Shown piece after piece: positions 1,666 through 23,189 of a stretch of DNA of 28,677 nt. The position numbers and the translations under genes were made by a program. This DNA comes from a virus. Location of the stretch: the IMG/VR virus record IMGVR_UViG_3300042892_002063, positions 1 to 28,677 of that record, one strand, 5' to 3'. Numbering within the stretch: position 1 is the first letter of the stretch; each line of letters starts with the position of its first letter. The notes below the pieces were generated by a model. It saw only the letters and a list, made by a program, of their open reading frames with translations. It made no database searches and was not told the DNA's origin.

Positions 1666-1673
1666 TATTTATG
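1666..1673 (-). promoter_or_regulatory. T4-type late promoter (CATAAATA) for the fibre gene
   Basis: On the minus strand CATAAATA matches the T4 late consensus TATAAATA at 7 of 8 positions. It lies 22 nt upstream of the fibre ATG at 1644 and directly after the terminator of the preceding gene, so the fibre appears to be an independent late unit. Confidence 0.7.
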
Positions 1674-20397: not shown

Positions 20398-20423
20398 AAA
20401 AAAAGCGATCATAAAGATCGCTT
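20398..20423 (-). terminator. Rho-independent terminator
   Basis: On the minus strand AAGCGATC/GATCGCTT forms an 8-bp stem with a 5-nt loop, followed by seven T. It ends the single-gene unit 20445-20861. Confidence 0.93.
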
Positions 20424-20444
20424 CTTTGTTGATAGAACTAACTA

Positions 20445-20861
20445 TTAGGCCAGTTTGAAGTTGCCAGAACTAGTCACAGTAACTTGAGCCGTACCACCAT
20501 AAACGTTTCCACGACTGCCAATGTTGCCGGCTGCTCTTAGAATTGTTTGTAGATCTGTGGCACTCATTGCTGAACGTTCTGCCAAGATACTGATCTGTTG
20601 TGCACCACTCGTGCCTGCATCAATCTGATACATGGCGATTTGTGCGTTGCTGTTCAAAGTACGTAGAACTGTTTCAACAGCACCACCGGTGCCCAGTTCA
20701 GCTGCTAAATTTGCTGTACCTGCGATAAATGAAACTTTGTAGCATGTGACTGGTGCACTCAAACCAGTGTTGATGATCACGGCGTTGGCATTGATGCTGC
20801 CAAAATTATCAACGTTTCTTACCTGTTGTGCATCTCCTGCTGTGCGTGTTACTATTGCCAT
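20445..20861 (-). CDS. Small Ala/Thr/Gly-rich late protein, likely virion decoration, unknown
   Basis: 138 aa, low in charge and rich in Ala, Thr, Gly, Val and Asn (M-A-I-V-T-R-T-A-G-D). The middle V-T-C-Y-K-V-S-F-I-A-G-T-A-N and N-A-Q-I-A-M-Y-Q-I-D look beta-rich. AAGGAG is perfectly placed. The gene has its own CATAAATA promoter, a 5' leader hairpin and a terminator, a setup expected of an abundant late protein such as a capsid decoration or minor capsid protein. The leader is nearly the same as that of the neighbour at 20971-21282. Confidence 0.75.
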   Translation of the reverse strand: MAIVTRTAGDAQQVRNVDNFGSINANAVIINTGLSAPVTCYKVSFIAGTANLAAELGTGGAVETVLRTLNSNAQIAMYQIDAGTSGAQQISILAERSAMSATDLQTILRAAGNIGSRGNVYGGTAQVTVTSSGNFKLA

Positions 20862-20882
20862 TTTATTTCTCCTTAATTAAGT

Positions 20883-20895
20883 TGCGTGGACCGCA
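20883..20895 (-). promoter_or_regulatory. 5' leader hairpin TGCG-loop-CGCA
   Basis: On the minus strand TGCG-GTCCA-CGCA, about 7 nt after the late box and upstream of AAGGAG. Conserved in place and in stem with 21303-21315, so likely functional (mRNA stability or translation). Confidence 0.55.
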
Positions 20896-20901
20896 TGCTT
20901 G

Positions 20902-20909
20902 TATTTATG
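20902..20909 (-). promoter_or_regulatory. T4-type late promoter (CATAAATA)
   Basis: CATAAATA followed by C on the minus strand, 41 nt before the ATG at 20861 and just after the upstream terminator. Confidence 0.75.
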
Positions 20910-20920
20910 TCAAACTCAAC

Positions 20921-20946
20921 AAAAAAGCAGGACATTGTCCTGCTTT
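20921..20946 (-). terminator. Rho-independent terminator
   Basis: On the minus strand AAAGCAGGA/TCCTGCTTT stem with a 5-nt loop and a T run (complement of 20921-20926). It ends the gene at 20971-21282. Its symmetry could also stop transcription from the other side. Confidence 0.9.
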
Positions 20947-20970
20947 TGTTTGTTGCCCGGTTAAAATTAA

Positions 20971-21282
20971 TTAACGTGCGGCAAAGTATGCTACGACAGC
21001 AGATGTAACACCTGTCACACCACCAAAATTGGACCCAGCTGCTGGAGCTGGACCTTCTGTGATCATGTGTACTGCATCAGTTGTGCCAGCAACAAATGGC
21101 TCACCAGTGGTCTGGTCGCCAGCAATCGCTAGAACAGATGATGTTAACTGAACAAAAGCAACAACAGCGTCTACTTCTGCTTGTGTTAGATTTGTCTTGC
21201 TAAATGATGTCAATGCAAGTTGACGACCTGCTGCACCAAATGATTTTGTGTTACCGTGTACTTTAGTTACTCCGATTGCCAT
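20971..21282 (-). CDS. Small Ala/Thr/Gly/Val-rich late protein, likely virion decoration, unknown
   Basis: 103 aa, opening M-A-I-G-V-T-K-V-H-G-N-T-K-S-F-G. Low charge, rich in Ala, Val, Thr and Gly, with V-T-G-V-T-S-A-V-V-A-Y-F-A-A-R at the end. Same leader layout as the next gene (late box, hairpin, AAGGAG, M-A-I) and its own terminator. I could not show that the two proteins are homologous beyond the first few residues. Probably an abundant virion protein. Confidence 0.72.
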   Translation of the reverse strand: MAIGVTKVHGNTKSFGAAGRQLALTSFSKTNLTQAEVDAVVAFVQLTSSVLAIAGDQTTGEPFVAGTTDAVHMITEGPAPAAGSNFGGVTGVTSAVVAYFAAR

Positions 21283-21302
21283 GTTAATTCTCCTTAAATA
21301 TG

Positions 21303-21315
21303 TGCGTTGAACGCA
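21303..21315 (-). promoter_or_regulatory. 5' leader hairpin TGCG-loop-CGCA
   Basis: On the minus strand TGCG-TTCAA-CGCA, about 7 nt after the late box. The stem extends by two weaker pairs. Matches the leader at 20883-20895 in stem, loop length and distance. Confidence 0.55.
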
Positions 21316-21321
21316 TACTTT

Positions 21322-21329
21322 TATTTATG
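21322..21329 (-). promoter_or_regulatory. T4-type late promoter (CATAAATA)
   Basis: CATAAATA on the minus strand, 40 nt before the ATG at 21282, in the gap after the ligase-like gene. Confidence 0.75.
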
Positions 21330-21339
21330 CAAGTTGGTG

Positions 21340-22416
21340 TTATTTGTTGAAATGACTTTGTCTAAACCCCGTGCTGACCAGCTTATAAGGGCCTTGTGTG
21401 GGACTATTAAATACAAACCCTTCCCCTCCAGCACCGCCTGGGGTAGACATAGCTATGTTTTTAACCTGCTGTGTAAATACTCGATCTAGGTAGTCTTTTA
21501 GTTGATAAATGCTGTTATAAATCATTTTAAGAGCGTTCCAGCCCTGGGTGTTTCTGTATAAAATACCGCCTTGATTGTCACCTATTAGTTTTTTATAGTT
21601 AGCAGGATCGTTTTGTTTTAGCCACTCGTCTACTGATAGATCAGTCTGGCGTGTTATTTTTTGATTGAAATACTGTTCTAGTTTTGCACGAGCGGATTTA
21701 GTGCCCAATTGATTTAAAAAAGTATCTACTAGATTTCCGTATTGACCAAGAATTGTTTCTGCATTTTTGTACAGTTGCGTAAGCTGTCTATCATAGGTGC
21801 CTAGTCCAAATTGATTATCTATATTTGGTCCCAACAAGGCCACGTTGCCAGAGCCTTCCAGTCCTTTGCCATCCCAAGGTCGTTCATTCATGCTGTGTAC
21901 AAATATCACTGCATTTTTACCTGCCAGTGCCTGACCTGCTTTGCTGTTGGCCGGTATCGCATATTGTGCCGTGGGACCACGTAAAACATAGTTTCCTTTG
22001 ACAGGATCGGACAAAGTAAAATAGTCGCCTTTAAACGTCACTGGTTGAGAGCCAACACTTTGCTCTAAACTGGACCATATGGCCTCGAGTTTTTTATATA
22101 AATCTGGACGTTGGGTTCCAGACTTTTTATTTGTATCGTATGCGATCCAGTCTTGTACACTATGAGCCAATATGCCTTTTGGATACATGTACTTGTCTGA
22201 ACAAAAGAACTGTCCTCGAGCGTCGCGGCCAAAGAATAGTGCTACTTCGCCGTCCCACTTGATTGTTACTTGTTCTGGATTGGTGATAATTTCTTTGAGA
22301 GTGTCAACTGCTCGTTTGGCTTCGGCACTACTGGTAAAGATAGCATTTTCAGGATGGGGTATTCTGGGATTGTCCGCAGTACCTTCAAATAAGAAATCAA
22401 CAAAATCCAATCTCAT
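21340..22416 (-). CDS. Ligase-like nucleotidyltransferase with KxDG motif (DUF6267-like), uncharacterised
   Basis: 358 aa from ATG 22416, overlapping the upstream stop as ATGA. The motifs of the DNA/RNA ligase and capping-enzyme superfamily appear in order: motif I V-T-I-K-W-D-G with candidate adenylated Lys53, motif III-like F-K-G-D-Y-F-T (130-131), motif IV E-G-F-V-F with Glu332, and motif V Y-K-L-V with Lys345. I recall similar proteins in T4-like phages under the label DUF6267, with no proven activity. The protein opens M-R-L-D-F-V-D-F-L-F-E-G, where L-F-E fits the T4 prohead-protease site. Co-transcribed with a pol-beta-type nucleotidyltransferase. Target DNA or RNA unknown. Confidence 0.7.
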   Translation of the reverse strand: MRLDFVDFLFEGTADNPRIPHPENAIFTSSAEAKRAVDTLKEIITNPEQVTIKWDGEVALFFGRDARGQFFCSDKYMYPKGILAHSVQDWIAYDTNKKSGTQRPDLYKKLEAIWSSLEQSVGSQPVTFKGDYFTLSDPVKGNYVLRGPTAQYAIPANSKAGQALAGKNAVIFVHSMNERPWDGKGLEGSGNVALLGPNIDNQFGLGTYDRQLTQLYKNAETILGQYGNLVDTFLNQLGTKSARAKLEQYFNQKITRQTDLSVDEWLKQNDPANYKKLIGDNQGGILYRNTQGWNALKMIYNSIYQLKDYLDRVFTQQVKNIAMSTPGGAGGEGFVFNSPTQGPYKLVSTGFRQSHFNK

Positions 22417-23189
22417 AGGTTGTGTCCCATAGTTCTGAACCAAGCAGCCGAGCCAGGTGTGGGTGCTGTTTCGGGCAGTGTGAGTACACCTTTGGCCACA
22501 GCTTGGTGTGCCTGTGCCAGTTTGCCTTCACGATCGGGATCGCCTTCAAGTGCTTTCATCACTGCAGCAGCACTGTCCAAGTCTGCGGCTCGAGCACCAG
22601 GGTTCAACAATATTTTTGCGATTTCGTTACGGTCCTTGCTGACCATGGTGCTGTCAGCATCACGATTATTGAGCGTACCGGCAAAGGCATCCACCTTCAT
22701 GTTCTTAAAGTTGGCAATGCTGTTCAACAAAATATACAGGTGTGCGGCTTTGAATTTGGGGTCAGCATACATGCCACGTGGACCATGTTGATGCCAGTCG
22801 GCCACACGCTTGGCATCGGCTATGATCATGAGATCTACCTGTGCATAACGCTGTTTTCCATCTTGAGCCGAGTAAGGAACATCCACATGTACGTTGCGAC
22901 CTTTGACTGCTGTTTTAAATCCCTTGGCTTGAAAATACTGTGCCAGGGCCTGCTTGGCACCTGTGGCATTGTCTGATCCAAAGTTTTTTACAGCAGCACG
23001 CTCATCGATAAAAAGATCAATGTCACCACTTTCAACCTTGTAACCAGCAGAACCTATGTCGGCTATAATTTTGTTTTGCAAAGCGGAAGGTAATTCTAAT
23101 TTGACTGTGTTGATCACTGTGGCAACATCTTCTTTGGCCACAGCTGACGTGTTGTCGAATACTTTTCCGCCTTCGTAAAGATAAAACAT
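22413..23189 (-). CDS. Polymerase-beta-type nucleotidyltransferase, uncharacterised
   Basis: 258 aa. Gly46-Ser47 then D-I-D-L-F-I with Asp56 and Asp58, and V-D-L-M-I with Asp119, form the GS...DxD...D catalytic pattern of this superfamily (CCA-adding, MNT and related enzymes), which transfer a nucleotide to RNA, protein or small molecules. The C-terminal half is helical. The opening M-F-Y-L-Y-E-G-G has an L-Y-E that could be a prohead-protease site. GGAG stands 8 nt before the ATG. It sits between an unknown protein and the ligase-like gene, with a 4-nt overlap to the latter. All three catalytic acids seem present. Substrate unknown. Confidence 0.7.
   Translation of the reverse strand: MFYLYEGGKVFDNTSAVAKEDVATVINTVKLELPSALQNKIIADIGSAGYKVESGDIDLFIDERAAVKNFGSDNATGAKQALAQYFQAKGFKTAVKGRNVHVDVPYSAQDGKQRYAQVDLMIIADAKRVADWHQHGPRGMYADPKFKAAHLYILLNSIANFKNMKVDAFAGTLNNRDADSTMVSKDRNEIAKILLNPGARAADLDSAAAVMKALEGDPDREGKLAQAHQAVAKGVLTLPETAPTPGSAAWFRTMGHNL

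What the first reader, a model, noticed from the sequence alone, without database searches (positions are those of the whole stretch)
20398..21329. Twin single-gene late cassettes with matching 5' leaders
Two neighbouring genes have the same arrangement: terminator, CATAAATA, a TGCG-5 nt-CGCA hairpin about 7 nt later, an AT stretch, AAGGAG, and an M-A-I start, then each its own strong terminator. The leaders align almost base for base from the late box to the ATG while the coding regions do not clearly align. This is a duplicated expression module, fit for very abundant virion proteins, and the hairpin may protect the mRNA 5' end.
Basis: seen in the sequence. Interest (0 to 1): 0.58.

Follow-up and report, generated by a model that had tools for sequence, protein, structure and literature searches.

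The report
Hairpin-capped late leaders before twin genes
Two neighbouring genes of an uncultured T4-like phage each have their own late promoter, and their messages are predicted to begin almost exactly with a small RNA hairpin that related phages keep while its letters change, so it probably shields the messages of very abundant, still unnamed phage proteins from decay.

Summary
The twin leaders are real: box, TGCG-5-CGCA hairpin, AAGGAG and ATG align with one gap (0 of 5000 shuffles). One correction: the upstream gene has no terminator in front; terminators follow each gene. Of 45 IMG/VR loci encoding P1 relatives, 44 carry the leader by my reading, as do 4 of 4 P2 relatives. More distant P2 relatives keep a hairpin at the same place with entirely different stems. 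Swapping 3' halves between leaders destroys pairing (0 of 1000). Loop length varies and G-U pairs occur, which fits RNA, not a DNA operator. T4 late boxes span -13 to -6, so transcripts should start 0-4 nt, usually 1 nt, before the stem: a 5'-terminal hairpin, the classic shield against RppH/RNase E. In a 357-kb relative the twins rank 1 and 2 of 183 ORFs for capsid-like codon usage, implying very high expression. P1 and P2 share a predicted ferredoxin-like fold: probably ancient paralogues. Virion role is unproven; the major capsid gene lacks the leader. Phage Hsp20 genes, some in cultured phages, also start with hairpins, so the idea is testable. No transcript data exist here.

The parts
21322..21329 (-). 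late-promoter box CATAAATA of the upstream twin gene (P2)
   Evidence: sequence; NATAAATA is the late promoter of T4-like cyanophages (PMC2984593, passages)
21303..21316 (-). predicted +1 (A at 21316) and 5'-terminal hairpin TGCG-TTCAA-CGCA (21315-21303)
   Evidence: sequence; +1 placed from the T4 rule, box at -13 to -6 (PMC1524935); fold; -3.7 kcal/mol for the hairpin, shuffle p 0.014
21290..21295 (-). Shine-Dalgarno AAGGAG of P2
   Evidence: sequence
20971..21282 (-). P2, 103 aa, family B; low-confidence N-terminus then beta-alpha-beta-beta-(alpha)-beta
   Evidence: ORF; 45 relatives; model
20923..20947 (-). terminator between P2 and P1
   Evidence: stem of 11 pairs, (listed on the plus strand; near-palindromic stem, T run on the minus strand read)
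20902..20909 (-). late-promoter box CATAAATA of the downstream twin gene (P1)
   Evidence: sequence
20883..20896 (-). predicted +1 (A at 20896) and 5'-terminal hairpin TGCG-GTCCA-CGCA (20895-20883)
   Evidence: sequence; fold; -4.2 kcal/mol, shuffle p 0.026
20869..20874 (-). Shine-Dalgarno AAGGAG of P1
   Evidence: sequence
20445..20861 (-). P1, 138 aa, family A; residues 1-31 low confidence, then beta-alpha-beta-beta-alpha-beta
   Evidence: ORF; 45 relatives; model
20403..20423 (-). terminator behind P1
   Evidence: stem of 8 pairs, (listed on the plus strand; T run on the minus strand read)

Best explanation
Each twin gene is a self-contained late transcription unit of a T4-like phage. RNA polymerase with the phage late sigma factor starts at the box, and the transcript begins with one unpaired A followed at once by a short hairpin. 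The hairpin hides the 5' end from the pyrophosphohydrolase RppH and from RNase E's 5' sensor, so the mRNA lives longer, while the AT-rich linker and AAGGAG behind it stay open for strong translation. The pair arose by tandem duplication of one cassette (leader plus gene); the proteins diverged, the leaders stayed alike. Shown: leader, its conservation, compensating changes, position next to the predicted +1, capsid-like codon usage. Inferred: the start site, the half-life effect, the enzymes avoided, high protein level.
For: 44 of 45 P1-relative loci and 4 of 4 P2 relatives carry the leader (my reading). In 77 leaders a stem of 4 or more pairs starts within 4 nt of the predicted +1 in 72: 57 with exactly one unpaired base, 11 with two, 3 with four, 1 with none; loops of 3-7 nt in 71 of them and 11 in one; 21 distinct stems. 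Swap test on 18 representatives: -84.7 against -15.0 (sd 6.6), 0 of 1000. Predicted folds show a small hairpin and mostly open SD. Other late-box leaders of the same phages mostly lack it: hairpin at 3 of 18 sites (G001), 3 of 14 (G003), T4 0 of 17; in G001 and G003 the hits are the twins and an HSP20 gene. T4 late sigma gp55 has a relative in 3 of 6 records. Codon usage ranks 1 and 2 of 183. [quoted passage not shown] the T4 gene 32 leader hairpin stabilises mRNA (PMC8948821, passage citing Gorski 1985).
Against: No transcript end or half-life has been measured; +1 is taken from T4. Stems are short (4-5 pairs, about -2.5 to -5 kcal/mol) in the TGCG group and there nearly invariant, so compensation shows only between groups. 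15 of 77 leaders are not better than shuffles at 0.05 and 5 have no stem of 4 pairs at offset 4 or less. A fixed-column pair count is weak: 76% paired against 69% shuffled (11 of 500), covariation score reached by 85 of 500 shuffles (several rows are misaligned). The major capsid gene lacks the leader. The host and its decay enzymes are unknown.
Confidence: 0.6

Rival explanations
1. The hairpin is a binding site for a protein, for instance the gene products themselves, which have an RRM-like order of strands and helices, and serves autogenous control of translation or stability.
For: Predicted beta-alpha-beta-beta-alpha-beta fold with RRM and ribosomal S6 among the weak structural neighbours; twin leaders co-vary within a phage, as a shared binder would require.
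Against: Loop length and sequence, and the stem outside the TGCG group, vary freely. Structural matches are not significant by Foldseek (best PDB E 5e-3), Z stays under 8, and the fold is very common. The hairpin does not cover the SD.
Confidence: 0.15
2. The hairpin acts in transcription (promoter escape, pausing, insulation from read-through), not on the finished mRNA.
For: It lies entirely in the first 15-25 transcribed bases, at a nearly fixed distance from the box.
Against: Other late boxes of the same phages do without it. It does not cover the SD, unlike the T4 gene e hairpin, which blocks early read-through and is lost from late transcripts (PMC3014915).
Confidence: 0.12
3. The inverted repeat is a DNA operator (palindromic protein site) overlapping the start of transcription.
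For: In the TGCG group the stem letters are nearly invariant.
Against: Distance between half-sites varies from 3 to 7 nt (11 in one), letters change completely in relatives, and G-U pairs occur (L026, L006, L038, L209, L228).
Confidence: 0.05
4. Part of the pattern is mere recent common descent of one leader, with no function of the hairpin.
For: The TGCG group is nearly invariant and many loci are near-duplicates.
Against: 21 distinct stems in 77 leaders and the swap test; the same arrangement in the otherwise unlike leaders of phage Hsp20 genes.
Confidence: 0.04

Closest known systems
5'-terminal stem-loops that stabilise mRNA in E. coli (ompA, papA)
   Same: stem-loop at the very 5' end, open linker and ribosome site behind; the review ties the effect to RppH and RNase E needing single-stranded 5' ends (PMC3997798, passages)
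   Different: here it is coupled to a phage late promoter and kept as a shape rather than a sequence; stability was not measured
T4 gene 32 leader with CUUCGG hairpin
   Same: phage mRNA stabilised by a leader hairpin (PMC8948821, passage)
   Different: gene 32 is a replication gene with its own transcription pattern (recalled); here late box, stem 0-4 nt after +1, other genes
T4 gene e hairpin overlapping late promoters
   Same: late box next to a hairpin in T4-like phages (PMC3014915, passages)
   Different: there the 5' arm is upstream of the late start and the hairpin hides the ribosome site in early read-through RNA; here both arms are in the late RNA and the site is open
freshwater-2 RNA (Rfam RF02980)
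   Same: true copies in relatives of these phages sit right behind a late box and before AAGGAG-ATG
   Different: three stems and another gene; the window leader scores 23.6 bits against a cut-off of 49.9 and aligns only outside its hairpin
T4-type late promoters (NATAAATA)
   Same: box and expected +1
   Different: T4 sites lack the hairpin: 0 of 17 in about 100 kb

Membership tests
T4-type late promoter | NATAAATA box at -13 to -6 | tested here: met
   both boxes match in sequence; the start site itself is not measured
T4-type late promoter | phage encodes the late sigma factor gp55 | tested here: inconclusive
   found in 3 of 6 records of relatives; the window is a 28.7-kb fragment and was not searched for it
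mRNA-stabilising 5'-terminal stem-loop | stem begins within a few nt of the transcript's 5' end | tested here: inconclusive
   predicted 1 unpaired base from the T4 rule; no mapped 5' end
mRNA-stabilising 5'-terminal stem-loop | base pairing is kept by selection | tested here: met
   swap test, 0 of 1000; 21 distinct stems; the fixed-column count is weak
mRNA-stabilising 5'-terminal stem-loop | longer half-life that depends on the stem | not testable with these tools
   needs an experiment
freshwater-2 RNA (RF02980) | covariance-model score at or above 49.9 bits | tested here: not met
   23.6 bits
T4 gene e type early-read-through switch | hairpin covers the ribosome site, late start inside the hairpin | tested here: not met
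   both arms downstream of predicted +1, AAGGAG unpaired in the folds of both window leaders
virion structural protein (P1, P2) | match to a known structural family | tested here: inconclusive
   PHROGs none for P1 and P2, only weak scattered hits among 28 B members; Pfam Tail_P2_I 15.2 bits under its cut-off 20.6 for P1

The most novel reading that the evidence does not exclude
A whole branch of T4-like phages of aquatic bacteria uses late promoters fused to a hairpin at +1 as a dedicated high-output leader class: a structural 'cap' that evolves freely in letters, is matched between twin genes of a phage, and is attached to small ferredoxin-like proteins, Hsp20, a gene behind gp23 (freshwater-2 RNA) and, in phage HTVC008M, the tail sheath. 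It would be a phage answer to the lack of an mRNA cap, and would assign a setting to an orphan Rfam family.
Probability: 0.4. Interest if true: 0.72.

Novelty: new variant of a known kind. Interest (0 to 1): 0.6.

Why it matters
How phages keep late mRNA alive is little studied: whether RppH acts on T4 mRNA was 'not yet investigated' in the 2010 review (PMC3014915, passages). A leader class whose hairpin sits at +1 and changes letters but not shape gives a clean, portable test, and the Hsp20 leaders put it in cultured phages. It also points to protein families without a name that look as strongly expressed as the capsid, and gives a context for Rfam's freshwater-2 RNA.

Tried and rejected
DNA operator: rejected, loop length varies and G-U pairs occur. 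Plus-strand terminator: the scan lists both hairpins as terminator-like on the plus strand, but the T-rich tail is just the reversed box and no T run follows. Membership in freshwater-2: rejected. General leader of abundant virion genes: rejected, since gp23 lacks it; a sheath family search gave only one sub-threshold hit in 11 records. P1 and P2 in cultured phages: tblastn of P1, P2 and two distant B members against 50,697 records found nothing. Host: a scan of 84,980 bacterial and archaeal genomes with family A found no relative. PDB sequence search with family A: nothing meaningful; structural neighbours only at the level of a common fold. Rfam at gathering scores: 0 matches in 13 sources and one tRNA only in 8 further sources. 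P1 against P2: hhalign with the wider B alignment gives probability 35%, E 4e-4 over 71 columns, suggestive only. Sheath leader of HTVC008M: hairpin at +1, but in phage Mosig the first stem lies about 22 nt in and in Melnitz 3 nt in, so not a firm class member. The fixed-column pair count did not give strong support; the misaligned rows (L209, L215, L228, L227, L245) were left in. Rows dropped: two of 79 collected leaders (a double regex hit in L016, and L236 whose box was mis-cut) and L241 without a box; one search counts only sites with an SD-like match and an ORF of 60 aa or more; searches use different filters, so their counts differ. Literature: no paper on late boxes joined to +1 hairpins in searches (open-licence papers only); for most hits I saw only the listing.

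Full report
What is there. The window is a 28,677-bp virus record of IMG/VR with its main genes on the minus strand, among them a DnaB-type helicase, a Toprim primase-like protein and a ribonucleotide reductase. Two small genes, P2 (20971-21282, 103 aa) and P1 (20445-20861, 138 aa), each have their own leader: CATAAATA, 5 nt, A, TGCG-5 nt-CGCA, an AT-rich stretch, AAGGAG, 7 nt, ATG. The leaders align with one gap at score 32; the best of 60 comparisons with other gene starts is 7, and 0 of 5000 shuffles reach 32. Terminators follow P2 and P1 (listed on the plus strand, T runs on the minus strand read by eye), but none precedes P2: its box lies just behind the end of a DUF6267-family gene. The boxes alone are not significant (3 found, 1.73 expected).

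Relatives. P1 has 45 matching loci and P2 four in IMG/VR. Reading the 49 upstream stretches, 44 of 45 and 4 of 4 show the same leader, the exception being L020. A strict pattern occurs in 20 of 20 records tried, which were chosen because they hold such leaders or relatives: twice in 8, once in 12; even the 357-kb, 289-kb and 104-kb contigs have just two, side by side. The leader precedes several protein families: A (P1), B (P2) and C, in the pairs A+A, A+C or B+A. A profile search with B gave 45 loci.

The hairpin is kept as a shape. In distant B relatives the box and position stay but the stem is rewritten: GTGC/GCAC, TACGC/GCGTA, TGAATC/GATTCA, GAAGAC/GTCTTC, GTGTAAA/TTTACAC. Of 77 leaders, 72 have a stem of 4 or more pairs starting 0-4 nt after the predicted +1: 57 leave exactly one base unpaired, 11 two, 3 four, 1 none; 62 of 77 beat dinucleotide shuffles at 0.05; 21 stems are distinct. 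With six more leaders, 81 of 83 have a hairpin; for 18 representatives of distinct stems, true pairing sums to -84.7 kcal/mol against -15.0 (sd 6.6) when 3' halves are swapped, 0 of 1000. Representatives were picked as the most stable per stem, which favours the true value somewhat. A fixed-column count on an 18-row alignment is weak, because in the TGCG group the stem hardly varies and several other rows are misaligned. Loop length varies and G-U pairs occur, which speaks for RNA and against a DNA operator.

Where the RNA starts. In T4 the late box spans -13 to -6 (PMC1524935, passages); NATAAATA is the late box of cyanophages (PMC2984593, passages). This puts +1 on the A just before TGCG. 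Relatives carry a gp55-like late sigma factor (3 of 6 records) and a gp23 capsid gene (4 of 11 records). The start is inferred, not measured.

Specificity. Among sites with late box, SD and ORF, a hairpin of -3 kcal/mol or better at offset 2 or less is found at 2 of 5 (window, the twins), 3 of 18 (G001), 3 of 14 (G003), 2 of 4 (G004), 2 of 5 (G014) and 0 of 17 (T4). The hits in the relatives are twin-family genes and, in G001, G003 and G014, an HSP20 gene (the G001 and G014 copies typed by Pfam). Random 36-mers of the same DNA give 0.045 to 0.083. The gp23 gene lacks box and hairpin directly in front. With the same test, 50-kb stretches of two cultured phages gave 1 of 8 sites (S-PM2, by eye probably a terminator) and 2 of 7 (HTVC008M: tail sheath and Hsp20).

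Expression. In 160 kb of G001, the twin genes rank 1 and 2 of 183 ORFs in codon likeness to that phage's own gp23, corrected for amino-acid content (z 7.2 and 6.7; next 4.8); the B gene ranks first of 15 in two other phages. This implies very strong translation, not a virion role.

Proteins. Models of P1 (pLDDT 74, pTM 0.67) and P2 (pLDDT 77, pTM 0.65) have a low-confidence N-terminus and the same beta-alpha-beta-beta-(alpha)-beta order. Both resemble ferredoxin-like proteins at Z under 8, and P2 weakly matches relatives of P1 in BFVD (E 5e-3; compare). A and the second-gene families align at probability 97%, E 8e-11; A and B at 35%, E 4e-4. An ancient tandem duplication is likely, not proven. 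Twin leaders are more alike within a phage (0.598) than across phages (0.329; same slot 0.322 and 0.367), 0 of 20000 permutations over 15 genomes; two near-identical genomes were dropped. This fits concerted evolution or a shared factor, and partly reflects deep divergence between groups.

Mechanism. [quoted passage not shown] a Bacillus RppH needs at least two unpaired 5' nucleotides (PMC3997798, passages). A stem that leaves one base free is what such protection would need. A T4 precedent is the gene 32 leader (PMC8948821, passage). I hold 5'-end protection most likely (0.6), then protein binding (0.15) and a transcriptional role (0.12).

Wider setting. Phage Hsp20 genes show the same principle: box, 5 nt, then a stem at once, with changed letters, in HTVC008M, Mosig, S-CRM01 and the uncultured G001 and G014. 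In six more cyanophages the hairpin directly follows a TAAATA-type box in four (S-RIM12, P-TIM40, metaG-MbCM1, S-SSM4) and a TATAAT-type box in S-BM3; MA10 has no such box and its hairpin was read by eye. Not all T4-like sheath genes follow: HTVC008M does, Mosig does not, Melnitz starts at the fourth base. True freshwater-2 RNAs (63-65 bits) lie in 3 of 30 relatives' records, right behind a late box.

Verdict. Virion identity and mRNA protection remain to be tested.

Noticed in passing
L272 1501-1580 (+), L273 1501-1579 (+), L274 1501-1579 (-): Rfam freshwater-2 RNA (63-65 bits) in relatives' records lies directly behind a T4-type late box and before AAGGAG-ATG; in G021 and G023 it follows the gp23 capsid gene. 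It looks like the structured 5' leader of a late mRNA.
   Followed up: partly
L288 31889 (+), L291, L292, L250 19843 (-), L264 8912 (-), L294-L299: Phage Hsp20 genes have a hairpin right at the predicted +1, with rewritten stems and often a CUUCGG-like cap, in cultured pelagiphages and cyanophages; no Rfam match at gathering score in the loci scanned (without L294-L299).
   Followed up: partly
L288 6785 (+): Tail sheath gene of Pelagibacter phage HTVC008M: late box, 5 nt, then a 7-pair stem GAGATTA/TAATCTC at +1; Mosig does not share the position.
   Followed up: partly
window 1666-1673 (-): Third CATAAATA, 21 nt before the ATG of a long open frame (MPAFANVYLG..., 548 aa, runs off the window), behind a T-rich stretch but without this hairpin: a short, plain late leader.
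   Followed up: no
window 20971-21282 and 20445-20861: Unlike families behind these leaders share the first 3-9 residues (M-A/P-I-G-x-T-R), as if leader and first codons were exchanged as one unit.
   Followed up: no
L255 13898 (-): A RecA-like gene (MATTLAEIRAKL..., name recalled) of the 357-kb relative has a CTAAATA box and an 8-pair hairpin at +1, but the start codon is far downstream.
   Followed up: no
window 21340-22443 (-): Gene in front of the twins matches DUF6267 and phrog_455, both of unknown function.
   Followed up: no
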